Assembly: GCF_024611995.1 (NCBI RefSeq)
Contig: NZ_CP102509.1
Location: 8,556,001-8,620,000, forward strand
Reading direction: 5' to 3'
Origin: Streptomyces sp. NBC_00162
GTDB lineage: Bacteria; Actinomycetota; Actinomycetes; Streptomycetales; Streptomycetaceae
Length of the DNA stretch: 64,000 nt
The notes below the pieces were generated by a model that did no database searches, was not told the DNA's origin, and saw only the letters and a list, made by a program, of their open reading frames with translations. Shown piece by piece: positions 7,623-55,655 of the stretch (position 1 is the stretch's first letter; each line of letters opens with the position of its first letter). A program made the position numbers and the translations under genes.

Positions 7623-9021
7623 GGGCGTGTCAGCGATTTTGTGTAAGTCGGTTGGTGTCATTGGATGCTGAGCCGGTCCTCGAAGAAGAGTGAGAACTGG
7701 TTCAGTGCCTCTTTCCAGTGTGCGGCGACGTGGTTCGCGTCGCGCGCTTTGGGGTTGATCTGTTCGCGGACCGCGAGGTAGAGGACCTTCAACGCGGCTT
7801 GTTCCGAGGGGAAGTGGCCGCGGTTGCGGGTGGCTTTGCGGAGGCGGGCGTTCATGGATTCGACCATGTTCGTGGAGTAGACCACCGTCCTTATGGCCGG
7901 CGGGAACGCCAGGTAGGGCGTGAACTCCGGCCAGGCAGATCGCCACGTCCGCACGATGGCCGGGTAGCGCTCGCCCAGGTCAGAGGCTGCGAACAGATCG
8001 AGGGCCTGCTCGGCGGCCTGCTCGGTCGGTGCCGTGTAGATCGCCTTCAGGGCCGGCACCAGCTTCGGGTGGTCCCGCGACGACGACAGCCTGAGCGAGG
8101 CTCTCGTCAGGTGGATCACGCACGTCTGGACGGTGGCCTTGGGCCAGGTCGCGGTGACCGCGTCAGGCAGGCCCTTCAACCCGTCACAGACCACGATGCA
8201 GACATCCTCGATGCCCCGGTTCCGCAGCTCCGACAGGACTGCCATCCAGGTGGTGGCGCCTTCGCCCTCGGCTCCGACCCACAGACCGAGGACGTCCTTG
8301 CGGCCGTCCATGTCCACGCCGACGGCCAGATAGACGGGCTTCGAGGTCACTGAACCGGACCGGATCTTCACCCACAAAGCGTCGATGTAGACGATCGGCC
8401 AGACCGCATCCAGGGGCCGGTTCTGCCAGGTCACGAGCTCGTCGATCACGGCATCGGTGACCTTGCTGATCAGATCGGGACTGACCTCGACCCCGTAGAT
8501 CTGCGCTAGGTGGGAGCGGATGTCCCGCACGCTCATCCCGCGGGCGTAGAGCGAGAGGATCCGGTCGTTGAACCCCGCCAGCCGGCGGGCGTTCTTCGGG
8601 ACCAGCCGCGGTTCGAACTCGCCATTGCGGTCCCTGGGCACCGCCAAAGTGACCGCGCCGGCATCGGTCAGGACCGTCTTGGATGACGTCCCGTTGCGCG
8701 AGTTCCCCGACCCGTGACCTGCGGAATCTCCACGCTCGTAGCCGAGATGTTCACTCATCTCGGCTTCCAGAGCACGCTCCAGAACAGCCTTGGTGACCTC
8801 CGTCAGCAGCCCGCCCTCACCCAGCAGGGCCGCCCCGGAGGCATCAGCCTTGTCCAGCAACCGCTGGACGACCTCATCGACCGTCTTGTCGCCGGCCACG
8901 GACGCGGCCGCTTCGTCTTTGTCCGCCATGACTCGTCCGATCCGCCCGGCCCAAGGGCCCGAGGCCGAGCCGCGGGCCAGGCTGTCACATCACGGACTTA
9001 CACGATCTTTCAGACACGCTC
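7623..9021 (-). mobile_element. IS256-family insertion sequence with 8-bp duplication
   Basis: A 1,399-bp element flanked by the direct repeat CCGAGGAC (7615-7622 and 9022-9029), the 8-bp duplication expected of IS256. Its ends are imperfect inverted repeats sharing GCGTGTC and GTGTAAGTC in the first ~28 bases. Removing the element and one repeat restores the ligase reading frame through to its stop. Confidence 0.88.
7658..8929 (-). CDS. IS256-family (Mutator-type) transposase
   Basis: A full-length 423-residue transposase. The N-terminal third is a DNA-binding region (LLTEVTKAVLERALEAEM, GNSRNGTSSKTV). The RNase-H-like core begins at IVYIDALWVKIRSG (first Asp), followed by the CDGLKGLPDAV segment (second Asp) and the HLTRASLR motif. 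The C-terminal YSTNMVESMNARLRKATRNRG carries the catalytic Glu. Length and motif order match intact IS256 enzymes, so the element may be active. It is the only gene of its element. Confidence 0.9.
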   Translation of the reverse strand: MADKDEAAASVAGDKTVDEVVQRLLDKADASGAALLGEGGLLTEVTKAVLERALEAEMSEHLGYERGDSAGHGSGNSRNGTSSKTVLTDAGAVTLAVPRDRNGEFEPRLVPKNARRLAGFNDRILSLYARGMSVRDIRSHLAQIYGVEVSPDLISKVTDAVIDELVTWQNRPLDAVWPIVYIDALWVKIRSGSVTSKPVYLAVGVDMDGRKDVLGLWVGAEGEGATTWMAVLSELRNRGIEDVCIVVCDGLKGLPDAVTATWPKATVQTCVIHLTRASLRLSSSRDHPKLVPALKAIYTAPTEQAAEQALDLFAASDLGERYPAIVRTWRSAWPEFTPYLAFPPAIRTVVYSTNMVESMNARLRKATRNRGHFPSEQAALKVLYLAVREQINPKARDANHVAAHWKEALNQFSLFFEDRLSIQ

Positions 9022-9275: not shown

Positions 9276-9337
9276 TTCCGCGGGCTCGCTGCATTTCACC
9301 TGGTCAGACCCCAAAATGCAGCTGGTGACTAGCCGGA

Positions 9338-9545
9338 CTTATAGGTAGGAGGGGGTAGGGGAGAGGAGAACAGGTGTGGGAGGGAGCGGGTTGCAGGAGG
9401 TGTGGGGGCTGAAGGGAAGGGACGGGGTGAGAGTCGGAGGAGAGACGGGGGAGGGAACGGAACCGGGGAGAGGGGGAAGGGGAGAGGGCCGGGTGGAGGT
9501 AAGGGATCAGAGGGAAACGAAGGGGGAAGGTTTTAGGGGAGGGCT
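9338..9545 (+). repeat. Polypurine (G/A) tract of about 200 bases
   Basis: From about 9338 to 9545 the plus strand is almost entirely purine, dominated by GGGA, GGAG and GGGGA blocks with only scattered pyrimidines. This is far from local composition. It carries many runs of four or more G and could form triplex or quadruplex structures. The stretch 9069-9642 has no supported gene. Confidence 0.6.
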
Positions 9546-9642
9546 GCGTGGTGAGGTGCTGGTGAGATCGATGTGGCAGGCCCTCTCGCTACAGTCGGCC
9601 GCAGCCGCGGGAGCACCTCGAACCACCTCTGTACGGCGGTCC

Positions 9643-9861: not shown

Positions 9862-9998
9862 CGCCCGCTCCGGCCTGCTGCGGCCTGTTGGCCGGTGCCC
9901 TATCCCTTACGGTGCCACCCTCGGCCGGTCCCCGGGCGGCTGATGTTCAGTAAATCACCGGCGGTATGAGGCAGCGTGATGGTCTTCACCACGGATCA

Positions 9999-10289
9999 TC
10001 ACGTGGCCGGGCCCTTGTCGATCTGGAGTTCGTTCACCCACTCCCGGGCCGCCGCGAGGCTGGGGGCGGTGCCGGACACTTGGTACGCGAAGCCGTCCCA
10101 CTCTTCCAGGACGCGAGGCTCGTCGGGGCGGAGGTGGCCGGCGCCGCCGTGCACGGGCCGGTGACGCCGGTAGATGTCCATCGGCGGGCGGCGCCGCTTG
10201 TTGTACGCGGCGAGTGGGTTGTCGGCATCGACGCGGGGGACGGCGCGGGAGGGCTGGTTGGGTGGTCCCGGTCGGCGGTGCTTGGCCAT
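9999..10289 (-). CDS. DUF6087 family protein
   Basis: A 96-residue protein from ATG 10289. The sequence from AKHRRPGPPNQPSR to RRPPMDIYRRHRPVHGGAGH and DEPRVLEEWDGF matches the DUF6087 family of small Streptomyces proteins of unknown function. It starts 13 bases after the regulator upstream on the same strand, so the two are probably co-transcribed. DUF6087 genes are often seen next to such XRE/TPR-type regulators; a link to the graspetide cluster is by position only. It is basic and Pro-rich at the start, with no membrane segment. Confidence 0.75.
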   Translation of the reverse strand: MAKHRRPGPPNQPSRAVPRVDADNPLAAYNKRRRPPMDIYRRHRPVHGGAGHLRPDEPRVLEEWDGFAYQVSGTAPSLAAAREWVNELQIDKGPAT

Positions 10290-10302
10290 GTGCTCGATGT
10301 TC

Positions 10303-11673
10303 TCAGGCCGCGACAGCGGTCGGACGCGCGGCGGCGAGATCCCTGGCACGGTTCCGTACGTCGTCCACGGCGCTGGTCTCGTACGGGCGGGCCGCGTGCA
10401 ACAGCGTGTTGAGCCGGGAGGTCACGAGGGCGGAGTCGACGCGGGCCGCGTCATCGAGCGCCTGCTGGGCGGCCTCGGCCCCGGCTTCGGCCTCGCCCTC
10501 GTCGAAGAGGGCGGCGGCAAGCCCGATGCGGTCCATGACGCGTACCCGGTCGAAGCCGGGCTTGCGCAGTGCGAGGGCGTCCTTGAAGTGGATGCTCGCG
10601 TACCGGCGGCCACGGCCGAGTCCGGCGAGGTCACGGGCGGAGACCGCGCGAGCGCCGGCGTGCTCAGCGGCGTCGAAGTAGCCCACCCACGCGGGGACGT
10701 CGTCGCCGAGGCCGGCCCCCAGGAACCCGTCAGCGTCACCAAGGTGCCTGTCCGCCTGGCGCGCGTCGCCGAGGGCCGCGTGCACTCGCCCGGTCTGGGA
10801 GGCGACGAGCGCCCGGGTCACGGGCAACTTCGCCTTCGTCGCGGCAACGCCGAGAAGACCGAGGGCGTCGTCCGGACGCCCGAGGTAGATCATCTGGTGC
10901 GACATGCGGGTGACGATTTCCACCCCGCGATCCGGCTGTCCCGCCTCCCCGGCCGCGTAGATCCCGTAGCTCCAGTACCGCTGCGCGGTCGGGTACCGGC
11001 CGCTGTCGTGGCTCACCCACCCGGCGAGCGCCGCCAGGTCGGCGGTTGCGGCGAACACCCGGGTCCGCAGACTCCGGGGCACCCCGTCCTGAACGCGGCG
11101 TGCGACTTCGGCGAGCTGGGCGACGATCGCCGAGCGGTACAGGCCGCCGCCCTTGGACGCGTCAGCTTTGGCGAAGAAGGCGGTGACCTCTTCGAGGGCG
11201 GTGACGGTGTCGGTGTCGAAGCCCTTGCGGTCGTTGTTCAGGGCGTGGGCGGTGCCGCCGAGCATCCGTTCGGCGGCGAGGATCAGCGGCGCGCCGATGG
11301 CGAGTCTGAGGGTGTCGCGGCGGTTCATGAACAGGTCCATCTGCGTCCATCCGGCCAGGGTCTGGGCGGCTGCCTCGGTCAGCAGCGGGAGCTGGATGCT
11401 ATCCAGCACGGGTCCGGCGGCGGTCAGGCCGAGATCACCGGGAGTGAGGTGCTGGCTTACCGCCTCGGAGAGGACTTCCGCGAGCAGGGCGGGCACCGGT
11501 GGGCGGGGCCGTTCGCCGTCGATCCAGCGCCGGATTCGGGTCGTGTCCGGGGCGATCTGGCGGTGACCTCTGACTTTGGCCGCTGCGGCGATCCGCCGGG
11601 CGATCTCCCCATGGGACAGGCCCGTCGCCGCGATCCACAGCGTCAGGTGCGGGTTGCCGGATCTGCTGGACAT
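10303..11673 (-). CDS. XRE-like transcriptional regulator with TPR-type sensor region
   Basis: About 456 residues from ATG 11673; the in-frame start at 11724 is less likely. The N-terminus has a helix-turn-helix (LSHGEIARRIAAAAKVRGH, then TTRIRRWIDGERPRPPVP). From about residue 130 it is an all-helical repeat region like the sensor domains of Streptomyces regulators that sit beside RiPP and other peptide clusters. It is divergent from the graspetide precursor, the common arrangement for ATP-grasp RiPP loci, so it probably controls that cluster. The 157-base gap between them should hold its operator. Confidence 0.75.
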   Translation of the reverse strand: MSSRSGNPHLTLWIAATGLSHGEIARRIAAAAKVRGHRQIAPDTTRIRRWIDGERPRPPVPALLAEVLSEAVSQHLTPGDLGLTAAGPVLDSIQLPLLTEAAAQTLAGWTQMDLFMNRRDTLRLAIGAPLILAAERMLGGTAHALNNDRKGFDTDTVTALEEVTAFFAKADASKGGGLYRSAIVAQLAEVARRVQDGVPRSLRTRVFAATADLAALAGWVSHDSGRYPTAQRYWSYGIYAAGEAGQPDRGVEIVTRMSHQMIYLGRPDDALGLLGVAATKAKLPVTRALVASQTGRVHAALGDARQADRHLGDADGFLGAGLGDDVPAWVGYFDAAEHAGARAVSARDLAGLGRGRRYASIHFKDALALRKPGFDRVRVMDRIGLAAALFDEGEAEAGAEAAQQALDDAARVDSALVTSRLNTLLHAARPYETSAVDDVRNRARDLAAARPTAVAA

Positions 11674-11830
11674 CGCTGCCTCACCCTCCCCGCCTGCATG
11701 TACGGAGCGTGGCATTTCCGCCACGGTTCGCGACCCCTACGTTACTGGTGCGGGCCTGCGTGGTGGGCCGATTCTTCTCAATGCGGCAGCCGACCGGCTA
11801 CCGCTCGAAGTACAGGGGAAGGGAATGCGC

Positions 11831-12097
11831 ATGGCAACGCTTGCACCCCAGGCTCCATGGGCGATGCGGCTGGTCTCTGACCGGCTGCCCATCAGCCCGC
11901 CGTCCTACGCGGCGGTGACCCTGGACGCGTCCACGCAGAAGGCCCGCTACACCGACACCGCTGGCCAGGTGGTGGATATGGGCCAGCACGGCACCAACCA
12001 GACCAATCCGACGTCGTCGATGTCCGGCGGCGGTGACGGAGCCAGCCCGCAGCCGCAGACCGCAGACGACTCCACCCCCGACTACAGCTCGGACTGA
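11831..12097 (+). CDS. tgmA: Graspetide (ATP-grasp-modified RiPP) precursor
   Basis: A precursor of about 88 residues. The strong purine site AGGGGAAGGGA (11814-11824) fits ATG 11831 better than ATG 11825. The leader contains APWAMRLVSDRLP, the aromatic/Arg leader motif by which ATP-grasp ligases recognise substrates. The core has VDMGQHGTNQTNPTSSM followed by a Gly/Ser linker and an acidic tail TADDSTPDYSSD, giving Thr/Ser donors and Asp acceptors for side-chain ester rings. The order precursor, ATP-grasp, methyltransferase matches the fuscimiditide/SAV_5884-type class, in which an Asp is finally turned into an aspartimide. Ring topology cannot be read from sequence. Confidence 0.85.
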   Translation: MATLAPQAPWAMRLVSDRLPISPPSYAAVTLDASTQKARYTDTAGQVVDMGQHGTNQTNPTSSMSGGGDGASPQPQTADDSTPDYSSD

Positions 12098-12100
12098 GCG

Positions 12101-13081
12101 ATGACCTCCACCATCCTGGTCGTCACCGCGCTGGAGGACGTCACCGCGGACCTGGTGATCTCCGTACTCAACGAGCGTGAGGTGCCCGTCGTACGCGTCG
12201 ACCCCGCCGACATCGGGACCGCCCTGACCTTCGCGGCCCGCATCGAGACAGGGACGCCCGCGTGGGGCGGACGGCTGGTCACCGGCAGCCGGGAGGTGGA
12301 GTTAGGGGAGGTGGCGGCGGTGTACTACCGCCGCCCCACCCCGTACGCCGCCCGGTACGGGCAGCTACCCGCCCAACAGCGGGACTTCTGCGTCGCCGAG
12401 GCCCGCCACGGGCTCGGCGGCATCCTGCACAGCCTGAACGGCGCCTTGTACGTCAACCATCCCCTCGCCGTCGCCCGGGCCGAATTCAAGCCCGCCCAGC
12501 TGAAGCAGTTCACGGAGCTCGGTCTGACGATCCCTGCGACGCTCGTCACCAACGACCGCGAGCAGGCCGCCAAGTTCGCCGCCGAGCACGGACCGATCAT
12601 CTACAAGCCGTTCCGCGGCCTGCCCCAGGGCGAGGACGGGCACACCGGAGCGATCTGGGCCCAGCGCGTCGACGCGGGCACCTTCGACGACTCCCTGACG
12701 GTGATGACCCATCTGTTCCAGGCCGAGGTGCCCAAGACCGGCGACGTACGGATGACCGTGGTCGGGACGCGCGTCTTCGCCAGCCGTATCGAGGCGCCAG
12801 ACCGTGCGCTGGACTGGCGCCGCGGCGACTGGAACGAACTGGTACACACCCCCATTGACGTGCCGGAGGCCATCACCGCCGCGGCACACAACTACCTGGC
12901 ATCGTTCGGGCTGGTCTTCGGCTGCTTCGACTTCGCCCTCACCGGCGACGGGAGCGCCGCCGAGCACTGGACAGCCATCGAGTGCAATCCGAACGGACAG
13001 TGGGGCTGGCTCCCGGACGCGCCGGCCATCACCGAGGCGTTCGCCGACATCCTCACCCAGGAAGGACGCGGCACCAAATGA
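12101..13081 (+). CDS. tgmB: ATP-grasp ribosomal peptide maturase
   Basis: A 326-residue ATP-grasp ligase of the TgmB/SAV_5884 type, which joins Thr/Ser hydroxyls to Asp/Glu carboxylates in the precursor using ATP. Visible landmarks are the N-terminal Rossmann-like strand (ILVVTALEDVTADLVI), the YYRRPTPYAARYG segment, the ATP-binding IIYKPFRGLPQ lysine strand, and the metal-binding C-terminal AIECNPNGQWGWLPDAP. It begins 3 bases after the precursor stop and overlaps the methyltransferase start by 4 bases, so the three genes form one translationally coupled operon. Confidence 0.9.
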   Translation: MTSTILVVTALEDVTADLVISVLNEREVPVVRVDPADIGTALTFAARIETGTPAWGGRLVTGSREVELGEVAAVYYRRPTPYAARYGQLPAQQRDFCVAEARHGLGGILHSLNGALYVNHPLAVARAEFKPAQLKQFTELGLTIPATLVTNDREQAAKFAAEHGPIIYKPFRGLPQGEDGHTGAIWAQRVDAGTFDDSLTVMTHLFQAEVPKTGDVRMTVVGTRVFASRIEAPDRALDWRRGDWNELVHTPIDVPEAITAAAHNYLASFGLVFGCFDFALTGDGSAAEHWTAIECNPNGQWGWLPDAPAITEAFADILTQEGRGTK

Positions 13082-14127
13082 CGATGCCCGCCGACCTTGA
13101 GACCGATGCCACGCAACTGCGGAAGACGATGGCGAAGGCCCTCGCCGAGGACGGAGCCCTCGCTGACCCGGCCTGGCGCCAGGCGGTGGAGCAGGTGCCG
13201 CGGCACCGGTTCGTGCCCGGCTTCTACCTGCCCGCCGACGAACGCGACGGCCAGGGCCTGACCGTCTGGGAGCCAGTCACCGCCGAACTCGACAACGGCC
13301 GGTGGCTGGCCGCCGCGTACTCCGACACGACTCTGATCACGCAGTTCGACAGCGACGAACCCGACTGGAAGCGCCCCGCCGTACGTCACGGCGGAGCCCC
13401 GACTTCGTCCTCCACACTCCCGTCGCTCGTCTTACAGATGTGGGCGGACGCCGACGTGCAGGACGGCCACACGCTCCTGGAGATCGGCACCGGGACCGGC
13501 TACTCCACCGCGCTCGCCTGCGAACGCCTCGGATCCGCCGGCGTCACCAGCATCGAGGTCGACCCGCACCGGCTCAGCCAGGCAGCAGACGCGCTGTACG
13601 GCCTGGGCTACAGCCCCACCCTCGCTGTGGCGGACGGCCTGTACGGGTACTGGCCCGAAGCCCGCTTCGACCGGATCGTGGCCGCCTGCTCGTTCCGCGC
13701 GGTGCCCCCTGCCCTGCTCGCGCAGACCCGGCCTGGCGGGAAGATCCTTCTGACCCTCTCGGGCTGGCTCTACGGATACGCCCGCGTCCTCCTGACCGTC
13801 GGCGCCGACGGCACCGCCGAGGGCCAGCTGCTTCCCGGAACGGTGTCGTTCATGTCGGCGCGCACCCACGCGGCGCCGACGTTCGGCAACCCCGCCCACT
13901 GGGCCGCGGGCCTTTCTGAGCCCCGGACTACCCCGCACAGCCCGGAGCGGATCAGCGACGCCACCGAGGAGGCGTTCCACCTGCGATTCCTCGCCCAAAG
14001 CGCGGCCCCGGACGCACAGATGACGACCGTGGGCGATGCGGTGCGCCTTGTCGACGTTGTCACCGGCTCCGCTGCCACCCTCACCCCTCGCGAGGGGGTT
14101 GGCAGGTGTGCGAGGGCGGACCGGTGA
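13078..14127 (+). CDS. tgmC: PIMT-like O-methyltransferase of graspetide pathway (C-terminus frameshifted)
   Basis: A SAM-dependent methyltransferase related to protein-L-isoaspartate methyltransferase. HTLLEIGTGTGYSTAL (about 130-146) is the SAM loop, and RAVPPALLAQTRPGGKIL is the post-I region. In fuscimiditide-type clusters this enzyme methylates an Asp of the ester-ringed peptide, which then collapses to an aspartimide. It starts at ATG 13078, overlapping tgmB by ATGA. The annotated frame stops at 14127, but restoring one G in the G5 run 14094-14098 extends it through VKLWERIERVLDAYD to a stop at 14271-14273. The last ~50 residues are therefore lost, or the run is mis-sequenced. Confidence 0.82.
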   Translation: MTMPADLETDATQLRKTMAKALAEDGALADPAWRQAVEQVPRHRFVPGFYLPADERDGQGLTVWEPVTAELDNGRWLAAAYSDTTLITQFDSDEPDWKRPAVRHGGAPTSSSTLPSLVLQMWADADVQDGHTLLEIGTGTGYSTALACERLGSAGVTSIEVDPHRLSQAADALYGLGYSPTLAVADGLYGYWPEARFDRIVAACSFRAVPPALLAQTRPGGKILLTLSGWLYGYARVLLTVGADGTAEGQLLPGTVSFMSARTHAAPTFGNPAHWAAGLSEPRTTPHSPERISDATEEAFHLRFLAQSAAPDAQMTTVGDAVRLVDVVTGSAATLTPREGVGRCARADR

Positions 14128-14304
14128 AGCTGTGGGAGCGCATCGAGCGTGTCCTGGATGCCTACGACGCGGCCGACCAGCCCGGCCCGGAGACCTTCAC
14201 CCTGCACGTCGACGACGGCGGGCAGCATCTGCGGCACCCGCAGATGCCCGGCCTGCCACTGCCCCGGTCCTGACAGGGCCGGGAGTGACCTCCATCCCCG
14301 TGTG

Positions 14305-14328
14305 CGGCCGACGGGCTTCCGTCGGCCG
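14305..14328 (+). terminator. Terminator hairpin of the graspetide operon
   Basis: A perfect 10-bp stem CGGCCGACGG / CCGTCGGCCG around a GCTT loop lies 32 bases after the restored methyltransferase stop. It is followed by TCATCGTT, not a long T-run, as is usual in Streptomyces. It probably ends the tgmABC transcript. Confidence 0.7.
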
Positions 14329-14460
14329 TCATCGTTGGAATCCGCCGACCATCACGCCCCCACTGACAACGCCGCACCCGACCAACGCGGGCACCCCGAA
14401 CCACGTCGGCCGGAACCCTTCCCATCAGGGCTATCGGGAGACGGTCACCCGCTTCTGGCG

Positions 14461-15216: not shown

Positions 15217-15377
15217 GAAGCTCCAGGGGTTGCGGGCCCTCGTGCAACGCCGCTGTCTGCCCTGAGGGTTTGGCCGGTGGCCTGCATCGTGTTGGGAGCG
15301 GGGAGACCTTACGCTCGCCAGCGGATCGGGCAGCATTACAGCTGCCCTTTAGTGTCCGATGAGGTCTTCCCGCTTAG

Positions 15378-16778
15378 TACTGCAACGGCGTTTGGTGTGA
15401 CTGGTGGCCAGGTTGGTCGTTGGTCTGGATATGGGTGGGGTACTTGGTGATGTGAGGGCGTGGGCGGCGGGTCTGGGTGAGGTGCATGAGCGGTTCGTGC
15501 ACCGGTTTGCCCGGTCGGAGCCGCGTGAGTCGGCACTGGCGTATATGCGGGGTCTGGTATCTCCGCTGGAGCGGAAGAACGGCTGGACACTCGCGGAAGA
15601 GGCTGGGCATGGGGGCCCGGACCGCATGCACCGGCTGCTGAACCGGTGCGACTGGGACGCTGATGAAGTCCTCGACGACGTCCGCGACTACGTCTTCGAG
15701 CATCTCGGTGACCCCGAAGCGGTCCTGATCGTGGACGACACCGGCTTCCTGAAGAAGGGCATCCGCTCGGCCGGCGTCCAGCGCCAATACTCGGGAACGG
15801 CGGGCCGCACGGAGAACTGCCAGGTCGGTGTCTTCCTCGCCTATGCCGGCGAACGCGGTCGCACGCTGATCGACCGCCGCTTGTATCTGCCCACGTCGTG
15901 GACCGATGACCGGGAACGGTGCCGGGCCGCGGGCATCGAGGACACGGTCGCCTTCGAGACGAAAGTGGTCATCGCCAAGGCGATGGTCCGCCGGGCGATC
16001 GCGGAGAAGATCCCGTTCCGCTGGGTGACCGCGGACGCTGCCTACGGCTTCTCCAAGGGCTGGCGGACCGAGTTGGAGCGGGCTGATGTCTTCCACGTCA
16101 TGGCCACCACCCGGCACGACACTGTCGTCTCCCGCTGGGCCATGGACCACCCGGTCCACGACCTGTTCAACGGCCTTGCGAGGCAGAAGTGGAAGCGTCG
16201 TTCCTGCGGGATGGGCGCCCACGGCCCGCGGGTCTACGACTGGGCACGCGTGGAGGTCCGGCCCTGGCACCGCGAGGACCGCCGGCACTGGGTCATCGCC
16301 CGCCGAAGCGTGAGCCGGCCCGACCAGATCTCCTTCTACATCGCCTACTGCCCCGCCGAGACCACCCTCGACGAACTCATTCACGTTGCGGGCAGCCGGT
16401 GGGCGGTCGAGGAATGCTTCCAGACCGCGAAACAGGAATGCGGCCTGGACGACTACCAGGTCCGCCGATATCCCGGCTGGCACCGCCACATCACCCTCGC
16501 CATGGCCGCCCACGTCTGCCTCACCGTCCTGAAGGCCCGCGAGGCCAACACAGGGAAAGCAGAAACGGATCCTCCCAGCTCATACCCCTCACCCTCCCCG
16601 AAATCCGACGCCTGATCACCCGCCTCACCCACCGCCGACCAGCACCCGTCGAACACGTCCTGCACTGGTCACACTGGCGCCGCAGACGACAGTTCCAGGC
16701 CCGCACCAGCCACTACAAACAACGCGGCCACACACCACCAGAGACTGCCAACCTGTCAGAGCAAAGACCGTTGCAGTA
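15378..16778 (+). mobile_element. IS701-family element, copy 1
   Basis: 1,401 bp with inverted ends TACTGCAACGG... and flanking TTAG duplications (15374-15377, 16779-16782), the YTAR-type target of IS701. It is apparently identical to the inverted copy at 22885-24285. It inserted exactly at the left edge of the IS5 element that follows. Confidence 0.9.
15404..16615 (+). CDS. IS701-family transposase (C-terminal frameshift)
   Basis: The main frame of 403 residues. The catalytic core shows AVLIVDDTGFLKKG (first Asp), FRWVTADAAYGFSKGW (second Asp) and GSRWAVEECFQTAKQE (Glu), typical of IS701/IS4-group DDE enzymes. The frame ends early: after a CCC at 16574-16576 the normal C-terminus (LIPLTLPEIRRLITRLTHRRP) continues in another frame to about 16782. 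Adding one C restores it. Both copies share the defect, so it either predates duplication or is systematic. Confidence 0.85.
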   Translation: MARLVVGLDMGGVLGDVRAWAAGLGEVHERFVHRFARSEPRESALAYMRGLVSPLERKNGWTLAEEAGHGGPDRMHRLLNRCDWDADEVLDDVRDYVFEHLGDPEAVLIVDDTGFLKKGIRSAGVQRQYSGTAGRTENCQVGVFLAYAGERGRTLIDRRLYLPTSWTDDRERCRAAGIEDTVAFETKVVIAKAMVRRAIAEKIPFRWVTADAAYGFSKGWRTELERADVFHVMATTRHDTVVSRWAMDHPVHDLFNGLARQKWKRRSCGMGAHGPRVYDWARVEVRPWHREDRRHWVIARRSVSRPDQISFYIAYCPAETTLDELIHVAGSRWAVEECFQTAKQECGLDDYQVRRYPGWHRHITLAMAAHVCLTVLKAREANTGKAETDPPSSYPSPSPKSDA

Positions 16779-17275: not shown

Positions 17276-18355
17276 TCAAGCTGCTTGAGGGAGATCATCA
17301 GCGGTGATTCGCCGTGTGCGCTGGTCTCCGCGTTCGAGGAGCTTGAAGAGCTGTCGGCAGATGGCGCGCTTGAGGCAGCGTTGGGCGTCCCTCGCGGTCT
17401 TCCCCTCGCTGATTCGGCGGGCAACGTAGGCACGGGTGATCGGATCGAGACGGATGCGGATCAAGGTGATCGTATGGAGGGCCCGGTTGAGCTGTCGGTC
17501 TCCGCTGCGGTTGATCCTGTGCCGGTTGGTCAGGCCTGACGAAGCGGGGATTGGAGCGACGCCTGCGAAGGCCGCGAACGCTGCCTCTGACCGGAAGCGC
17601 CCGGCGTGCGACCAGCTGATCAAGATCTGAGCGGCACTGATGGGCCCGATGCCCTGCAGCGCGAGCAGTTCGGGAGCGACGGTGCGAACGAGCGCGAGGA
17701 GTTCCAGCTCGAGTTCCTTCGCTTCAGAACGCAGGGCTTCGATCCGCTGACCGGCACTTCGCAGTGCACGAACGGTCATACGGTGTTCGATGCTCTGGGT
17801 CGGCCGGTCCCGGAGCTTCGCGCAGTGAGCTACCTGGTCCTTGCTTTTCAAGCCTCGGAGTTCGACGCGGAGCTCGTCGGGCGCCGAGATGATCAGAGCC
17901 TTGAGCAGGTTGATCGCAGCCGTGCTGGCGAGGACGGCGCTCTGGCGGGTGGTGAGAAGGACGCGAAGCGCCTCGCGTTCACCGCGGCGTCGTGGGTGGA
18001 TGAGGTGTTCGGTGGCCAGAGCCTCCCTGGCTGCGCGGACGGCGTCAAGCATGTCGGTCTTGCGTCCGCCCCGGATGACTGGACGCTTGGGCCGGCACAC
18101 CTCGACGACGCTTTCGCCAGCCGCGTCCAGGAAGGCGGCAAGTCCGGCGCCGTATGAGCCTGTCCCTTCCAGAGCCCAGCAGCGGCGGCCGGGAACGTGC
18201 TGGTGGGCGAAGTCCAGCAGCAGCTGGTAACCCCGGGCGTTGGCCGGCGAATCGGTGCTGGCCAGGACGGCGCCGATGGGGCTGACGGCCGCGGCGGCAA
18301 GAGTGTCTCGGTGAGTATCGACGCCGATGACGCCGTCGACGTGTTCTGCGAGCAT
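17276..18355 (-). CDS. IS110-family transposase A
   Basis: About 359 residues from ATG 18355; an upstream in-frame start exists at 18421. The N-terminal DEDD/RuvC-like domain shows GVIGVDTHRDTL, CWALEGTGSYG and RKTDMLDAVRAAREAL. The C-terminal transposase_20 domain shows LLALQGIGPISAAQIL and the conserved serine region VAPIPASSGLTNRHR, NRSGDRQLNRALHTI. IS110 enzymes are guided by a structured RNA transcribed from the element's non-coding end, here expected upstream at 18356-18700. It appears intact. Confidence 0.88.
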   Translation of the reverse strand: MLAEHVDGVIGVDTHRDTLAAAAVSPIGAVLASTDSPANARGYQLLLDFAHQHVPGRRCWALEGTGSYGAGLAAFLDAAGESVVEVCRPKRPVIRGGRKTDMLDAVRAAREALATEHLIHPRRRGEREALRVLLTTRQSAVLASTAAINLLKALIISAPDELRVELRGLKSKDQVAHCAKLRDRPTQSIEHRMTVRALRSAGQRIEALRSEAKELELELLALVRTVAPELLALQGIGPISAAQILISWSHAGRFRSEAAFAAFAGVAPIPASSGLTNRHRINRSGDRQLNRALHTITLIRIRLDPITRAYVARRISEGKTARDAQRCLKRAICRQLFKLLERGDQRTRRITADDLPQAA

Positions 18356-18867
18356 GGTCACGCGGTTGTTCTCCTTCGAGGGCTGGACGACCGTGGTCGA
18401 CGCCGGCCTGGGTGGAGTCACCGCGTGGCAGAACTGTGATGAGTCACGTCGAGATGGCGGACAAGCTGCTGATCAGGCCAACGGGGTGGGCCAGGCCGAC
18501 GTCGACGTCCGGCAGACATCTCGGGGGCACGGCAAGCTCTGACGAGCCGCCAGTTACCGTTCTGGGTCATGCCGGAACGCCAACGCCAGCCTGGCAGCAA
18601 CCCAACCCGGGCCGCAGGTCGACTATCACAGTTACCTTCTTCGTGGCCCCGCAATGGGGTTCCCGGTCTCCGGGTCCGGTATGACTTGAGCCCCTTGTCG
18701 ATCATGGTCGAAAAAGTGGTGTCACCGGGCCGGGAGGCATTGGCAGACCGCTGATCAGGGGCATGACCGCTCACCTTGCTCGTCGAGGTGAAGCAGGCCT
18801 TCGTAACGTGGATGCCGGCACGCTGATGCCGCAGCGGAGGCTGGGAAGGGTCTGCTGGGGAGGGGTT
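18356..18867. ncRNA. Candidate bridge-RNA leader region(s) of the IS110 pair
   Basis: About 510 bases without a supported gene separate the two divergent IS110 transposase starts. In the IS110 subgroup the guide (bridge) RNA is made from the non-coding left end upstream of the transposase, so this stretch should hold one RNA for each element, on opposite strands. Hairpin-capable segments are visible (for example around 18655-18690 and 18720-18760). Loop sequences and ends cannot be assigned by eye. Confidence 0.35.
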
Positions 18868-20070
18868 ATGCACCACGAGGGCGAGATCGATGTCTACCTC
18901 GGCCTGGACGTCGGCAAGGGTGAGCATCACGGCACGGCCATCACCCCGGCGGGCAAGAGAGTGTTCGACAAACCGCTGCCGAACAGTGAACCGCGGTTGC
19001 GGGAGCTGTTTACGAAACTGCAGGCCAGGCACGGAACCGTGCTGGTCGTAGTGGACCAGCCGGCCTCGATCGGGGCTCTGCCGCTGGCCGTTGCCCGCGA
19101 CGCGGGCTGCCGCGTGGCCTACCTTCCAGGGCTGACGATGCGGCGGATCGCCGATCTGTATCCAGGTGAGTCGAAGACCGACGCTCGTGACGCGGCGATC
19201 ATCGCGGATGCCGCCCGGACGATGCCGCACACCCTGCGCGACCTGGCTCCGGATGACGAAACGGTCGCCGAGCTGAACATGATCATTGGTTTCGACGACG
19301 ACCTCGCCGGCGAGGTGACCCGGGTCAAGAACCGCATGCGCGGCCTCCTCACCCAGATCCATCCCTCGCTCGAGCGGGTCCTGGGCCCTCGTCTGGATCA
19401 TCCGGCGGTCCTGATCCTGCTGGAACGTTACGGATCGCCCTCTCAGTTGAGGAAGGCCGGCAGGCGGCGCCTGACAACGATGCTGCGGCCCAAAGCACCG
19501 CGCATGGCCGAACGTCTCGTTGAGGACATCTTCACCGCACTGGACGAGCAGACCGTCATCGTTCCCGGCACCGAGGCCGCATCCTTGATCATTCCCAGCC
19601 TCGCCGGCTCGCTGGCCGCAGTACTCGACCAGCGCAAGCTCCTGGCCAGCAGGATCGAGGAACTGCTGGAGGCCCACCCTCTTTCCCAGGTCCTGATCTC
19701 GATGCCCGGCATCGGGGTCAGGACCGCGGCCCGCATCCTCGTCGACGTCGGTGACGGCAGCGGCTTCTCCACCGCCGGGCACCTGGCCGCCTACGCAGGC
19801 CTCGCGCCCGCCACCCGCAGATCCGGCTCGTCCATCCGCAGTGAACACCCGTCCAGGCGAGGCAACCGGCAGCTCAAGCGCGCCTTCTACCTCGCCGCAT
19901 TCGCCTCCCTCTCACAGCCGGACTCACGCGCCTACTACGACAGGAAACGACGAGAGGGAAAACACCACGTCGCAGCCCTCGTCTGCCTCGCCCGCCGCCG
20001 CATCGACGTCCTCTTCGCCATGCTCCGTGACGGCACCTTCTACCAGCCACCCACCACAGTCACGGCTTGA
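18868..20070 (+). CDS. IS110-family transposase B
   Basis: About 400 residues from ATG 18868, preceded by GGGGAGGGG; the longer in-frame start at 18763 lacks such a site. The N-terminal DEDD domain has YLGLDVGKGEHHG, VLVVVDQPASIG and ESKTDARDAAIIADAAR. The C-terminal domain has LISMPGIGVRTAARIL and AYAGLAPATRRSGSSI with the catalytic serine, then RRGNRQLKRAFYLAAF. It is clearly different from transposase A. Its 3' end abuts the IS5 gene within 20 bases of the stop. Confidence 0.88.
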   Translation: MHHEGEIDVYLGLDVGKGEHHGTAITPAGKRVFDKPLPNSEPRLRELFTKLQARHGTVLVVVDQPASIGALPLAVARDAGCRVAYLPGLTMRRIADLYPGESKTDARDAAIIADAARTMPHTLRDLAPDDETVAELNMIIGFDDDLAGEVTRVKNRMRGLLTQIHPSLERVLGPRLDHPAVLILLERYGSPSQLRKAGRRRLTTMLRPKAPRMAERLVEDIFTALDEQTVIVPGTEAASLIIPSLAGSLAAVLDQRKLLASRIEELLEAHPLSQVLISMPGIGVRTAARILVDVGDGSGFSTAGHLAAYAGLAPATRRSGSSIRSEHPSRRGNRQLKRAFYLAAFASLSQPDSRAYYDRKRREGKHHVAALVCLARRRIDVLFAMLRDGTFYQPPTTVTA

Positions 20071-22884: not shown

Positions 22885-24285
22885 TACTGCAACGGTCTTT
22901 GCTCTGACAGGTTGGCAGTCTCTGGTGGTGTGTGGCCGCGTTGTTTGTAGTGGCTGGTGCGGGCCTGGAACTGTCGTCTGCGGCGCCAGTGTGACCAGTG
23001 CAGGACGTGTTCGACGGGTGCTGGTCGGCGGTGGGTGAGGCGGGTGATCAGGCGTCGGATTTCGGGGAGGGTGAGGGGTATGAGCTGGGAGGATCCGTTT
23101 CTGCTTTCCCTGTGTTGGCCTCGCGGGCCTTCAGGACGGTGAGGCAGACGTGGGCGGCCATGGCGAGGGTGATGTGGCGGTGCCAGCCGGGATATCGGCG
23201 GACCTGGTAGTCGTCCAGGCCGCATTCCTGTTTCGCGGTCTGGAAGCATTCCTCGACCGCCCACCGGCTGCCCGCAACGTGAATGAGTTCGTCGAGGGTG
23301 GTCTCGGCGGGGCAGTAGGCGATGTAGAAGGAGATCTGGTCGGGCCGGCTCACGCTTCGGCGGGCGATGACCCAGTGCCGGCGGTCCTCGCGGTGCCAGG
23401 GCCGGACCTCCACGCGTGCCCAGTCGTAGACCCGCGGGCCGTGGGCGCCCATCCCGCAGGAACGACGCTTCCACTTCTGCCTCGCAAGGCCGTTGAACAG
23501 GTCGTGGACCGGGTGGTCCATGGCCCAGCGGGAGACGACAGTGTCGTGCCGGGTGGTGGCCATGACGTGGAAGACATCAGCCCGCTCCAACTCGGTCCGC
23601 CAGCCCTTGGAGAAGCCGTAGGCAGCGTCCGCGGTCACCCAGCGGAACGGGATCTTCTCCGCGATCGCCCGGCGGACCATCGCCTTGGCGATGACCACTT
23701 TCGTCTCGAAGGCGACCGTGTCCTCGATGCCCGCGGCCCGGCACCGTTCCCGGTCATCGGTCCACGACGTGGGCAGATACAAGCGGCGGTCGATCAGCGT
23801 GCGACCGCGTTCGCCGGCATAGGCGAGGAAGACACCGACCTGGCAGTTCTCCGTGCGGCCCGCCGTTCCCGAGTATTGGCGCTGGACGCCGGCCGAGCGG
23901 ATGCCCTTCTTCAGGAAGCCGGTGTCGTCCACGATCAGGACCGCTTCGGGGTCACCGAGATGCTCGAAGACGTAGTCGCGGACGTCGTCGAGGACTTCAT
24001 CAGCGTCCCAGTCGCACCGGTTCAGCAGCCGGTGCATGCGGTCCGGGCCCCCATGCCCAGCCTCTTCCGCGAGTGTCCAGCCGTTCTTCCGCTCCAGCGG
24101 AGATACCAGACCCCGCATATACGCCAGTGCCGACTCACGCGGCTCCGACCGGGCAAACCGGTGCACGAACCGCTCATGCACCTCACCCAGACCCGCCGCC
24201 CACGCCCTCACATCACCAAGTACCCCACCCATATCCAGACCAACGACCAACCTGGCCACCAGTCACACCAAACGCCGTTGCAGTA
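22885..24285 (-). mobile_element. IS701-family element, copy 2 (inverted)
   Basis: 1,401 bp, reverse-complement of copy 1 as far as can be read, flanked by CTAG duplications (22881-22884, 24286-24289). Each copy has its own 4-bp duplication, so they arrived independently rather than as one composite unit. Confidence 0.9.
23048..24259 (-). CDS. IS701-family transposase (same frameshift as copy 1)
   Basis: The same 403-residue main frame as the enzyme at 15404-16615, with the same DDE motifs (IVDDTGFLKKG, WVTADAAYGF, SRWAVEECFQTAKQE). The final ~80 residues are again displaced by one base, with the normal C-terminus in the adjacent frame down to about 22885. If the enzyme needs that tail, both copies are inactive. 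Confidence 0.85.
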   Translation of the reverse strand: MARLVVGLDMGGVLGDVRAWAAGLGEVHERFVHRFARSEPRESALAYMRGLVSPLERKNGWTLAEEAGHGGPDRMHRLLNRCDWDADEVLDDVRDYVFEHLGDPEAVLIVDDTGFLKKGIRSAGVQRQYSGTAGRTENCQVGVFLAYAGERGRTLIDRRLYLPTSWTDDRERCRAAGIEDTVAFETKVVIAKAMVRRAIAEKIPFRWVTADAAYGFSKGWRTELERADVFHVMATTRHDTVVSRWAMDHPVHDLFNGLARQKWKRRSCGMGAHGPRVYDWARVEVRPWHREDRRHWVIARRSVSRPDQISFYIAYCPAETTLDELIHVAGSRWAVEECFQTAKQECGLDDYQVRRYPGWHRHITLAMAAHVCLTVLKAREANTGKAETDPPSSYPSPSPKSDA

Positions 24286-24389
24286 CTAGGAAGCCTCCCG
24301 GGTTTTTTATCAACGCTATGTGTGGTGTCTGAGGGCGTTGTTACGAAGAACTGCATCCCATCCACCTGATTGGCCTCTAGCCTCGGATC

Positions 24390-38307: not shown

Positions 38308-39561
38308 GTGCTGAACGTGGAGGACTGGGCAGAGATACGCCGGCTGCATCGAGCGGAAGGTGTGCCCATCAAGGAGATCTCGCGGCGACTGGGGGTGGCC
38401 CGCAACACGGTGCGGGCCGCGTTGTCCTCGGAGCGACCGCCTAAGTACCAGCGGACACCTCGGGGATCGGTCGTCGACCCGTTCGAACCGCAGATCCGCG
38501 TCCTGCTGAACGAGTGGCCCCGGATGCCGGCACCGGTCATCGCCGAGCGGATCGGCTGGCCGTACTCGTTGCCGCCGCTGCGGAAGCGGCTGGCGGTGAT
38601 CCGGCCGGAGTACGTCGGCATCGACCCGGTCGACCGCGTGACCTACGAGCCCGGCGAGATCGCCCAGTGCGATCTGTGGTTCCCCGAGACGAAGGTGCGA
38701 GTCGCTGCCGGACAGGAACGGGTCCTACCCGTGCTGGTGATGTCGCTCGGGTTCTCCCGCTTCATGACCGCGACGATGATTCCGACCCGCCAGGCCGGCG
38801 ACATCCTCTCGGGCATGTGGTCCCTGATCAGCGGCATCGGCAGGGTCACGAAGACACTCGTCTGGGACCGCGAGTCCGCGATCGGCGGGACCGGGCGGGT
38901 GACCGCTCCCGCGGCGGCATTCGCCGGAACGCTTGCCACCAAGATCAAGCTGGCGCCGCCCCGCGACCCGGAATACAAGGGAATCGTTGAACGCAACAAC
39001 CAGTACCTGGAGACCTCGTTCCTCCCCGGCCGGCAGTTCGCCTCCCAGGCCGACTTCAATCACCAGCTGGGCGACTGGCTGATCAGGGCCAACGCGCGGA
39101 CGGTCCGCTCGATCCAGGGCCGCCCGGTCGACCGGCTGGAGACCGACTACCTGTCGATGCTCCCGCTACCACCGATCACCCCGCCCATAGGGCTGAACCA
39201 CCGCATCCGGCTGAGCCGGGACTACTACGTCCGCGTCGACACCGTCGACTACTCGGTCGACCCGCAGGTCATCGGCCGCTTCGTCGACATCACCGCCTCC
39301 CCACAGGAGGTCAGGGTCCTCTGCGAGGGCCAGCTCGTCGCCCGGCACACCAGGTCCTGGGCCAAGCAGGCCGTGGTCACCGACCCAGTCCACGTTGCAA
39401 CCGCCGCCCGACTACGTCAGGCCCTGGCGTTCGACCGCGAAAGACGCGAGGCAGCCACCCGCCAACACGCCGACGGCCACACCGTCGCGCTGCGGGCCCT
39501 GCCGGACTACGACGCCCTGTTCGGCGTCGACTTCAACCCGCCGTCCACGAAAGCGAAGTGA
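38308..39561 (+). CDS. istA: IS21 transposase IstA
   Basis: 417 residues from GTG 38308 with TTGGAGG upstream. The N-terminal HTH is EIRRLHRAEGVPIKEISRRL GVARNTVRAAL. The DDE core has EIAQCDLWFPETKV (first Asp), TLVWDRESAIGG (second Asp) and DPEYKGIVERNNQYLETSFL (Glu). The C-terminal beta-barrel and basic tail complete the enzyme. Three bases separate it from istB. Full length, so the element may be active. Confidence 0.92.
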   Translation: MLNVEDWAEIRRLHRAEGVPIKEISRRLGVARNTVRAALSSERPPKYQRTPRGSVVDPFEPQIRVLLNEWPRMPAPVIAERIGWPYSLPPLRKRLAVIRPEYVGIDPVDRVTYEPGEIAQCDLWFPETKVRVAAGQERVLPVLVMSLGFSRFMTATMIPTRQAGDILSGMWSLISGIGRVTKTLVWDRESAIGGTGRVTAPAAAFAGTLATKIKLAPPRDPEYKGIVERNNQYLETSFLPGRQFASQADFNHQLGDWLIRANARTVRSIQGRPVDRLETDYLSMLPLPPITPPIGLNHRIRLSRDYYVRVDTVDYSVDPQVIGRFVDITASPQEVRVLCEGQLVARHTRSWAKQAVVTDPVHVATAARLRQALAFDRERREAATRQHADGHTVALRALPDYDALFGVDFNPPSTKAK

Positions 39562-39564
39562 CCC

Positions 39565-40386
39565 ATGACCACGGCTATCAAGCCCGATCAGCCCACCGCG
39601 GTGACCGGGCCGAAGGACGGCATGCCGTCCATGCTCGCTTACCTGACCCGGGTGCTGAAGATGCCCACGATCGGCGCGGCCTGGGAAGAGCTCGCTGACC
39701 AGGCCCGCGACCAGAACTGGTCCCACGAGGAGTATCTGGCCGCCCTGCTGCAGCGGCAGGTCGCCGACCGCGAGTCCAAGGGCACCATGATGCGGATCCG
39801 CACCGCCCACTTCCCGCAGGTCAAAACACTGGAGGACTTCAACCTCGACCACCTGCCCTCGCTGCGGCGCGACGTCCTTGCCCACCTTGCGACCGGCACG
39901 TTCGTCGCGAAGGCCGAGAACGTGATCCTGCTGGGCCCTCCTGGGATCGGGAAGACGCACCTGGCCATCGGCCTGGGGGTCAAGGCCACCCAGGCCGGCT
40001 ACTCGGTCCTGTTCGACACCGCCAGCAATTGGATCGCCCGCCTCGCGACAGCCCACCAGGCCGGCCGCCTGGAGGCCGAGCTGAAGAAGATCCGCCGCTA
40101 CAAGTTGATCATTGTCGACGAGGTGGGCTACATCCCGTTCGACCAAGACGCGGCGAACCTGTTCTTCCAGCTCATCGCATCTCGCTACGAGCAGGGCTCT
40201 GTGATGGTCACCTCGAATCTCCCCTTCGGGCGGTGGGGAGAGACCTTCTCGGATGACGTTGTGGCCGCCGCGATGATCGACCGCTTGGCCCATCATGCCG
40301 AGGTCCTCACGCTGACCGGCGACTCCTACCGAACCCGCCAACGACGCGAACTGCTGAACAAGGAAAACGGCGCCGGACGCCGGTAA
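39565..40386 (+). CDS. istB: IS21 helper ATPase IstB
   Basis: 273 residues of AAA+ ATPase: Walker A LLGPPGIGKTHLAIGL, Walker B LIIVDEVGYIPFDQDAANLF, sensor region SVMVTSNLPFGRWGETF, and an N-terminal helical domain that docks IstA. IstB remodels target DNA for IS21 transposition. Immediately downstream of istA. Confidence 0.92.
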   Translation: MTTAIKPDQPTAVTGPKDGMPSMLAYLTRVLKMPTIGAAWEELADQARDQNWSHEEYLAALLQRQVADRESKGTMMRIRTAHFPQVKTLEDFNLDHLPSLRRDVLAHLATGTFVAKAENVILLGPPGIGKTHLAIGLGVKATQAGYSVLFDTASNWIARLATAHQAGRLEAELKKIRRYKLIIVDEVGYIPFDQDAANLFFQLIASRYEQGSVMVTSNLPFGRWGETFSDDVVAAAMIDRLAHHAEVLTLTGDSYRTRQRRELLNKENGAGRR

Positions 40387-48931: not shown

Positions 48932-49444
48932 ATGTTGATCGTGATGGCGGGGCTGCCTGGTGCGGGGAAGAGCTCGGTCGCCGAGGCGTTGGGGCGGGAG
49001 TTGGCCGCTCCGGTCGTGTCGGTGGATCCGATCGAGGCGGCGATGTGGCGTGCGGGGGTGGCTCGCGGGCAGCCCACGGGCCTTGCGGCGTATGTCGTGG
49101 CCGAGGCCGTGGCCGACGGTGTGCTGGCCCTGGGCCAGACGGTGATCATCGATGCGGTCAACGCGGTGGAGGAGGCGCGGGAGCAGTGGCGGTTGCTGGC
49201 GGCTCGTCATGACGTGCCGGTGGTGTTCATCGAGGTGGTGTGTTCGGATGCGGCGGTGCATCGCGGGCGGCTTGAGGGCCGGTCCCGGGGTATCGAGGGC
49301 TTCCATGAGCCGGCGTGGGAGGCGGTGGAGCGGCGACGGGAGGAGTTCGTACCGTGGTCGGATGACCGGTTGGTGCTGGACAGTGTGATCGACCTGCCGT
49401 CGAACGTCGCGGCGGCCCTGGGGTTCCTGGCCGCGGCGTCCTGA
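48932..49444 (+). CDS. AAA-type small kinase (zeta-toxin/AAA_33-like)
   Basis: 170 residues from ATG 48932. P-loop IVMAGLPGAGKSSVAEALGR at the start, PVVSVDPIEAAMWRAGV, QTVIIDAVNAVEEAREQWRL and PVVFIEVVCSDAAVHRGRLE with a lid-Arg region, then WEAVERRREEFVPW. This matches small nucleotide or antibiotic kinases of the AAA_33 family. Substrate unknown. Its TGA stop (49442-49444) directly abuts the end of an IS256 element; whether the natural C-terminus is complete is unclear. Confidence 0.8.
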   Translation: MLIVMAGLPGAGKSSVAEALGRELAAPVVSVDPIEAAMWRAGVARGQPTGLAAYVVAEAVADGVLALGQTVIIDAVNAVEEAREQWRLLAARHDVPVVFIEVVCSDAAVHRGRLEGRSRGIEGFHEPAWEAVERRREEFVPWSDDRLVLDSVIDLPSNVAAALGFLAAAS

Positions 49445-55402: not shown

Positions 55403-55655
55403 GAGTTTTTGGTCTTTCTGAAAAAACGTCAAGGCTGTGAGTCAGCGCAGCGTAAGCGAAGGAATTCACATCCGCATAGACGGACTTGTCGGCACGCCAT
55501 TTCCTGTCGGGGGCATGACATCCGGAATGATCGGTTTCAGGACGCTCGATGACGTTTTTGCAGGTCAGATGTGTCGAAGTAGGGTCTTGCGCGAAGTGCC
55601 TGAGGGAGTGTTGGCTGCGATTTTATCTGTCTTTTATTCCCTTGGGGGGTTTGCT
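55403..55655. promoter_or_regulatory. Divergent intergenic region of the RHS locus
   Basis: 253 bases between the VCBS protein (minus) and the RHS protein (plus). It is more AT-rich than its surroundings (for example TTTTATCTGTCTTTTATTCC near 55621), typical of a promoter zone. It probably drives both secreted proteins. An N-terminal extension of the RHS frame into this region (from 55437) is unlikely because GGGGGG lies correctly placed before GTG 55656. Confidence 0.5.

What the first reader, a model, noticed from the sequence alone, without database searches (positions are those of the whole stretch)
10303..14273. Fuscimiditide-type graspetide cluster with a new precursor core
Sequence shows a precursor with leader motif APWAMRLVSDRLP and a core VDMGQHGTNQTNPTSSM ending in TADDSTPDYSSD, an ATP-grasp ligase (AIECNPNGQWGW) and a PIMT-like methyltransferase, coupled by 3-base and ATGA junctions, with a divergent XRE/TPR-type regulator and DUF6087. 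From known chemistry this set makes Thr-Asp ester rings and then an aspartimide. The product is likely a new member.
Basis: partly seen in the sequence, partly recalled or inferred. Interest (0 to 1): 0.75.

Follow-up and report, generated by a model that had tools for sequence, protein, structure and literature searches.

The report
Known Streptomyces graspetide cluster, methyltransferase split
This is one more copy of a common Streptomyces gene set that makes a small ring-linked peptide, ordinary except that the gene for its last tailoring enzyme is read in two pieces here, so the final chemical step may not happen.

Summary
Window 9999-14273 holds DUF6087 and an NsdA-family regulator (minus strand), then a precursor (TIGR04186, PF14408), an ATP-grasp ligase (TIGR04187, above cut-off) and a PIMT-like methyltransferase (TIGR04188). 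It belongs to the known tgmABC / group 13 graspetide family: 112 precursor homologues, best 91% identical. The core is a sequence variant, not a new type: T55/T58/T61, D69-G70 and D79/D80/D84/D88 are nearly invariant.

Its frame ends at 14127 (349 aa; relatives mostly 397-401), and its last profile positions are matched by a separate ORF in another frame, 14106-14273. In 22 of 22 related loci where that stretch was found, one frame runs through. So ester rings are well supported, but the aspartimide step is doubtful as the sequence stands.

New detail: an inverted repeat CGTGGC-N6-GCCACG at 11708-11725, at the same place in 13 of 13 loci with the divergent NsdA-type gene and in 0 of 15 without it: a likely operator.

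The parts
9999..10286 (-). DUF6087 protein (95 aa), neighbour conserved with the regulator
   Evidence: PF19565, 37.2 bits, cut-off 27.1; in the same place in related loci
10303..11664 (-). NsdA-family TPR-like regulator, divergent from the precursor (start codon inferred)
   Evidence: NF053720 284.4 bits, cut-off 75
11708..11725 (.). Inverted repeat CGTGGC-ATTTCC-GCCACG, candidate operator of the divergent regulator
   Evidence: 13 of 13 loci (window included) with the NsdA-type neighbour have it 121-124 bases before the precursor ATG with at most 1 mismatch; 0 of 15 without the neighbour have it there; one perfect match in the 9.02-Mb genome with the spacer letters TTYC included
11831..12097 (+). 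tgmA-type graspetide precursor, 88 aa
   Evidence: TIGR04186 53.6 bits, cut-off 25; PF14408 58.5 bits, cut-off 25; 112 homologues
11993..12094 (+). Predicted ring region: T55/T58/T61, loop with D69-G70, D79/D80/D84/D88 (precursor residues 55-88)
   Evidence: Conservation in 112 homologues; ring pairing is inference
12101..13081 (+). tgmB-type ATP-grasp ligase, 326 aa, apparently intact
   Evidence: TIGR04187 383.5 bits, cut-off 350; 107 of 108 columns invariant in 22 relatives are kept, the exception being I for V at residue 5
13078..14127 (+). tgmC-type PIMT-like methyltransferase, first piece, 349 aa; residues up to about 339 match the family
   Evidence: TIGR04188 371.9 bits, cut-off 380, profile 1-317 of 363; 116 of 120 listed homologues are 397-401 aa
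14092..14105 (+). Stretch in which the methyltransferase reading frame changes (holds a run of five G)
   Evidence: Sequence; 22 of 22 related loci where a pattern found the stretch read through in one frame
14106..14273 (+). C-terminal piece of the methyltransferase in another frame, 55 aa from a GTG
   Evidence: TIGR04188 profile 324-363, 33.9 bits; similar pieces listed as separate short ORFs in other genomes

Best explanation
It is a tgmABC-type group 13 graspetide (graspimiditide) cluster of a common Streptomyces subfamily. Most likely, the ligase TgmB binds the leader (PWAMRLVxDRLP), activates C-terminal Asp carboxylates with ATP, and joins them as esters to upstream Thr residues. The nested pairs are probably T61-D80, T58-D84 and T55-D88, with D79 perhaps giving a fourth ring. 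This makes a stem with a long loop that carries D69-G70. In relatives the PIMT-like enzyme then methylates that loop Asp, which closes to an aspartimide. In this genome the enzyme's gene is split between two frames, so the product probably stays at the ester-ring (pre-aspartimide) stage. The divergent NsdA-type protein probably controls the cluster through the inverted repeat at 11708-11725. Shown here: the genes, the conservation, the frame change and the repeat. Inferred: the ring pairing, the chemistry, the regulation and the loss of the methyl step.
For: Family matches of all parts. Conservation of leader and core in 112 homologues. Same gene order in related loci and on a plasmid annotated tgmA-B-C. 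Ligase keeps 107 of 108 invariant columns. Methyltransferase frame change, with 22 of 22 found relatives in one frame. No frame change in 155 kb of aligned core coding sequence of this genome against a relative (looser limits are told in the full report), so base-call indels are not frequent. Breaks or losses in 10 of 35 related loci, in various genes (a sample that included fragments). Chemistry of the class from PMC13001092 section 9 and PMC13003496 section 7 part 1.
Against: No product has been seen. The frame change could still be an assembly error or be bypassed in translation. The C-terminal piece is little changed from relatives, so the break is recent or the piece is still selected. 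The ring pairing comes from conservation only; the predicted inner loop (residues 62-79, 18 aa) is longer than the 10-12 aa stated for graspimiditides.
Confidence: 0.72

Rival explanations
1. The frame change is a sequencing or assembly error in a G run. The methyltransferase is whole and the cluster makes an ordinary aspartimidylated graspetide.
For: The change sits at a run of five G; the C-terminal piece keeps family sequence and high third-position GC in its own frame (0.89); all other parts look intact.
Against: 0 frame changes in 155 kb of aligned core coding sequence of the same genome. Looser comparisons gave 1 in 65 kb (the place is the end of one gene and the start of the next, gyrB and gyrA by recalled sequence) and 3 in 211 kb, against 2 in 211 kb for the relative; two of the three are the same gene junction read on both strands, the third lies in a reading at about 60% identity and was not resolved. 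A protein identical over all 349 aa is listed with 2 members on contigs of at most 5,903 bases, which cannot be this 8.6-Mb contig if the table is literal (P0114); but that row has no source and may stand for the window itself.
Confidence: 0.25
2. The enzyme works in two pieces, or by frameshifting in translation: the 55-aa C-terminal piece is translated from the GTG at 14106, overlapping the end of the first piece, and completes the substrate-recognition domain.
For: GAGGGGG stands 7 bases before the GTG (sequence); similar C-terminal pieces occur as separate 55-aa ORFs on contigs of 31 kb or more in other genomes (P0237, P0239, P0241, P0243); S. labedae has a 350-aa version whose last residues resemble the out-of-frame tail here (P0134; protein only, its DNA was not seen).
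Against: 22 of 22 related loci where the stretch was found, and 22 of 24 other genomes in a family-wide sample (2 partial matches; 6 of the 24 are also in the genus sample), have one frame; breaks elsewhere are scattered over all genes; GAGG also arises there from the coding sequence of intact relatives.
Confidence: 0.06
3. The cluster is dead: precursor and ligase are not expressed and the set is being lost from a transposase-rich chromosome arm.
For: Transposase genes on both sides (7658-8929 and 15404-16615); breaks seen in several relatives.
Against: Precursor, ligase, regulator and the inverted repeat are all conserved in sequence.
Confidence: 0.15

Closest known systems
tgmA-tgmB-tgmC clusters of Streptomyces, e.g. 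plasmid NZ_CP107890.1 of Streptomyces sp. NBC_00470
   Same: Gene order DUF6087, regulator (annotated Tat pathway signal protein), precursor, ligase, methyltransferase; 82.6% DNA identity over 95% of window 9900-14400
   Different: tgmC is one gene there; here it is split over two frames
Fuscimiditide (ThfA/B/M, Thermobifida fusca)
   Same: Precursor, one ATP-grasp ligase and a PIMT-like methyltransferase; Thr-Asp esters with an Asp in the loop
   Different: Two esters with Thr and Asp each four apart; here three conserved Thr three apart and four conserved Asp; ThfM is active
Albusimiditide (S. albidoflavus J1074), amycolimiditide, SsfA (Streptomyces sp. F-3)
   Same: Nested Thr-Asp esters and a methylated Asp followed by Gly; the last 12 residues with four Asp and no Glu is a feature of SsfA also seen here (TADDSTPDYSSD)
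   Different: Sequences of these precursors were not available here, so relatedness was not measured; albusimiditide as the likeliest near relative is recalled from its abstract, whose paper is not held

Membership tests
Group 13 graspetide / graspimiditide | Precursor of the ATP-grasp-modified RiPP family with conserved leader | tested here: met
   TIGR04186 53.6 bits over cut-off 25; PF14408; leader conserved
Group 13 graspetide / graspimiditide | Adjacent ATP-grasp ligase | tested here: met
   TIGR04187 383.5 over cut-off 350; 107 of 108 invariant columns kept
Group 13 graspetide / graspimiditide | PIMT-like methyltransferase gene with the extra C-terminal domain, whole | tested here: not met
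   371.9 bits, below the cut-off 380; end of profile in another frame. Homologous gene present, but not one ORF
[quoted passage not shown]
   The piece in the other frame has YDAADQP; of the 120 listed homologues 69 read YxxxGxP and 30 YxxxDxP by a simple pattern, 2 read otherwise and 19 were not matched, so this subfamily mostly uses Y
Group 13 graspetide / graspimiditide | Thr and Asp sets flanking a loop with Asp-Gly | tested here: met
   T55/T58/T61, D69-G70, D79/D80/D84/D88
Group 13 graspetide / graspimiditide | Ester cross-links and aspartimide in the product | not testable with these tools
   Needs mass spectrometry
Fuscimiditide proper | Two nested Thr-Asp esters, Thr and Asp each four apart, 10-aa loop | tested here: not met
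   Conserved residue pattern differs (reference pattern)

The most novel reading that the evidence does not exclude
The methyltransferase works as two separately translated polypeptides, the 55-aa C-terminal piece being a substrate-recognition subunit, as an alternative form of the enzyme that has arisen more than once in Streptomyces.
Probability: 0.06. Interest if true: 0.5.

Novelty: new member of a known kind. Interest (0 to 1): 0.2.

Why it matters
As a cluster it adds one sequence variant to a family for which surveys report 962, 1326 and 1432 clusters (PMC13001092, section 9). Two points are of some use. A natural cluster with a sound ligase and a split methyltransferase would, if real, give the ester-ringed peptide without the aspartimide, whose biological role is not known (same review, section 12). 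And the inverted repeat tied to the NsdA-type regulator gives a concrete site to test for control of these clusters.

Tried and rejected
Programmed frameshifting or a split enzyme as the normal state of this subfamily: rejected as the main reading, because 22 of 22 related loci where the stretch was found (35 scanned; the search pattern matched nothing in the other 13) read through, and among the rows listed for the genus sample of 392 and the family sample of 394 no other genome at 55% identity or more has a match that ends near residue 342 (long lists, the first one cut).

Loss of the WXXXGXP motif as a sign of decay: rejected, because relatives also carry YxxxGxP or YxxxDxP.

Frequent base-call indels in this assembly: three controls. 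One search overlapped poorly (1 apparent change in 65 kb, a gene junction on inspection). One search, better overlap and ORFs of 250 aa or more, gave 0 in 155 kb., ORFs of 200 aa or more and looser limits, gave 3 in 211 kb here and 2 in 211 kb in the relative; two of the three are one gene junction, one is unresolved. This lowers but does not exclude an error at one site.

Structure of an intact relative (P0115): overall confidence poor (mean pLDDT 53.4), so not used for a fold search. Only the part from about 280 on is fairly confident (block means 66-93); there the missing piece covers one strand, the long helix and the last three strands.

Solved structures: no sequence match to the precursor at E up to 10. 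Papers holding all of the terms ATP-grasp, methyltransferase, frameshift, RiPP and pseudogene: 0; NsdA and graspetide: 0. The papers given as PMC10993234, PMC10078976 and PMC10038102 (albusimiditide survey, a graspetide paper in Nat. Chem. and amycolimiditide, as cited) are not held.

A scan of genome contigs with the precursor returned only 2 loci, so named organisms are few here.

Full report
What is there. The window lies at 8,556,001-8,620,000 of an 8.64-Mb contig in a 9.02-Mb genome of 2 contigs; of its precursor homologues, nearly all that carry a source name are Streptomyces. Minus strand: DUF6087 at 9999-10286 and an NsdA-family TPR-like regulator at 10303-11664. Plus strand: an 88-aa precursor (11831-12097), an ATP-grasp ligase (12101-13081), and a PIMT-like methyltransferase beginning at 13078. 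All family matches are far from chance (precursor E = 1.8e-14, ligase 7.1e-115, methyltransferase 3.8e-111). TIGR04187 has one match in the whole genome at E up to 0.001, this one.

Relatives. A search of 5.8 billion proteins found 112 precursor homologues, best 91% identical; named rows are mostly called 'putative ATP-grasp-modified RiPP'. In 392 genomes of the genus (own included), 118 have some match to the precursor; 27 places in 25 other genomes reach 57% identity or more over at least 83 residues. The order DUF6087, regulator, precursor, ligase, methyltransferase occurs in related loci such as L064-L066, L068-L072 and L076, and on plasmid NZ_CP107890.1, where the annotation names tgmA, tgmB and tgmC. 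So the set is known and routinely annotated.

Precursor. Across the aligned homologues the leader residues P9 (109/109), W10 (106/108), R18 (111/111), Q36 (111/111) and Y40 (112/112) are near invariant. In the core T55 (110/112), T58 (109/112), T61 (112/112), D69 and G70 (111/111 each), D79 (109/110), D80 (110/110), D84 (109/110) and D88 (109/110) are held. In characterised members Thr and Asp are joined by esters and a loop Asp, followed by Gly in the four characterised cases, is methylated (PMC13001092 section 9). The natural reading is nested T61-D80, T58-D84, T55-D88 pairs with D79 spare or in a fourth ring, and D69-G70 as the imide site. That pairing is inference. The inner loop would be 18 aa, longer than the 10-12 aa stated for graspimiditides (PMC12291112 section 7), but the residues that bound it are kept in the homologues, so it is not special to this window. 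The core (residues 50-88) differs from P0002 at 3 of 39 residues (by eye): a variant, not a new type.

Ligase. Of 108 columns invariant in 22 relatives, 107 are the same here; the exception is I for V at residue 5. The 22 are those of 35 loci with a near-complete ligase hit; 13 with a broken, partial, gapped or missing ligase were left out.

Methyltransferase. The frame from 13078 ends at 14127, giving 349 aa. Of the 120 best homologues listed (one identical to the query) 116 are 397-401 aa; the others are 349, 350, 382 and 394 aa (one search had 1869 hits in all). TIGR04188 matches the 349-aa product over profile 1-317 of 363 with 371.9 bits, under the cut-off of 380; the profile's end (324-363) is matched by ORF 14106-14273 in another frame. 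The change of frame falls in 14092-14105, which holds a run of five G. A search pattern found this stretch in 22 of 35 related loci; in 22 of 22 one frame runs through. In the genus sample, 33 other places at 61% identity or more are listed (a second row for G226 not counted): 27 near full length without stop, 1 with an in-frame TAG, 5 partial (the list is cut after its best rows). In the family sample 22 of 24 other genomes match from residue 20 or before to 390 or beyond and 2 are partial; 6 of the 24 were also in the genus sample. No close relative in these lists ends where this one does. S. labedae (P0134, 350 aa) ends in a tail like the out-of-frame tail here but with different residues before it; it looks like a separate event, but only the protein was seen. 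In a predicted structure of an intact relative only the part from about residue 280 on is fairly confident; the piece cut off here holds one strand, the long helix and the last three strands. The C-terminal domain is the proposed substrate-recognition domain of RiPP PIMTs (PMC13001092 section 11). So the first piece alone probably does not work.

Is the break real? An indel control in 155 kb of aligned core coding sequence of this genome against one relative found no frame change, and none in reverse over 160 kb (ORFs of 250 aa or more with high third-position GC). Looser limits gave 1 in 65 kb and 3 in 211 kb here against 2 in 211 kb in the relative. The case is a junction of two genes, and two of the three are one such junction seen on both strands; the third was not resolved. 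An error at one G run is still possible (put at 0.25). Breakage of this cluster is seen in several relatives: of 35 distinct loci examined (36 rows; L032 and L065 are the same place), ten show a frame break, an insertion or loss of most of a gene (L067, L075, L086, L087, L088, L091, L092, L093, L094, L098); in addition L078 has a shortened ligase hit and L090 and L095 lack partner genes in the stretch fetched. These loci were chosen from hits that included fragments, so ten of 35 is not a rate. Breaks fall in the precursor, ligase, regulator and methyltransferase, which argues for decay rather than a programmed event. Short separate C-terminal pieces in other genomes (28 proteins) fit the same view; some of them are likely contig-edge fragments.

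Control element. Alignment of 13 regulator-precursor intergenic regions (window included) shows a conserved inverted repeat, CGTGGC-N6-GCCACG, at 11708-11725. It is found with at most 1 mismatch, 121-124 bases before the ATG, in 13 of 13 loci with the NsdA-type neighbour (in L067 that neighbour is itself broken). In 15 loci without that neighbour it is absent from that place; one has a 2-mismatch hit at 147. Shuffled upstream regions give a hit at up to 2 mismatches in 344 of 5400. With the spacer letters TTYC included there is one perfect match in the genome, here, and one with 1 mismatch; the reversed control pattern has 3 with up to 1 mismatch. The loci with the neighbour are also more alike overall, so shared descent weakens the test. 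The genome has 23 places matching the NsdA family, 16 over the cut-off (two of these rows are parts of one gene region). The repeat is a likely site for this cluster's own regulator; that is inference.

Verdict. Observation largely right, interpretation right in class, but the aspartimide step is not safe and the product is a small variant. New member of a known kind, with a split methyltransferase. Papers: of PMC13001092 I read the abstract and sections 8, 9, 11 and 12; of PMC12291112 the abstract, section 7 and passages; of PMC13003496 the abstract and section 7 part 1; of PMC10787088 passages; other papers only as search listings with the start of the abstract. The description of albusimiditide as a Streptomyces cluster with four esters is recalled from an abstract and was not read here. 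That chromosome arms hold many mobile elements is general knowledge.

Noticed in passing
window 11708-11725: Inverted repeat between regulator and precursor, at the same place in 13 of 13 loci with the NsdA-type gene and 0 of 15 without.
   Followed up: partly
window 15375-16778 and 22885-24288: Two identical inverted copies (about 1.4 kb) of a DDE_5-type transposase element.
   Followed up: partly
window 7658-8929, 17276-18421, 18763-20070, 38308-40386, 49207-50730: Many other transposase genes (Mutator, IS110 and IS21 types), so this part of the chromosome is rich in mobile elements.
   Followed up: no
window 52142-62561: A 1096-aa FG-GAP protein next to a divergent 2374-aa RHS-repeat protein with a pretoxin HINT domain near its C-terminus.
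   Followed up: no
window 9300-9560: Purine-rich stretch (77% A+G on the + strand) between a transposase gene and DUF6087.
   Followed up: no
L075 (1852-7190): In a related locus the ligase gene is parted by about 5.3 kb of other DNA.
   Followed up: no
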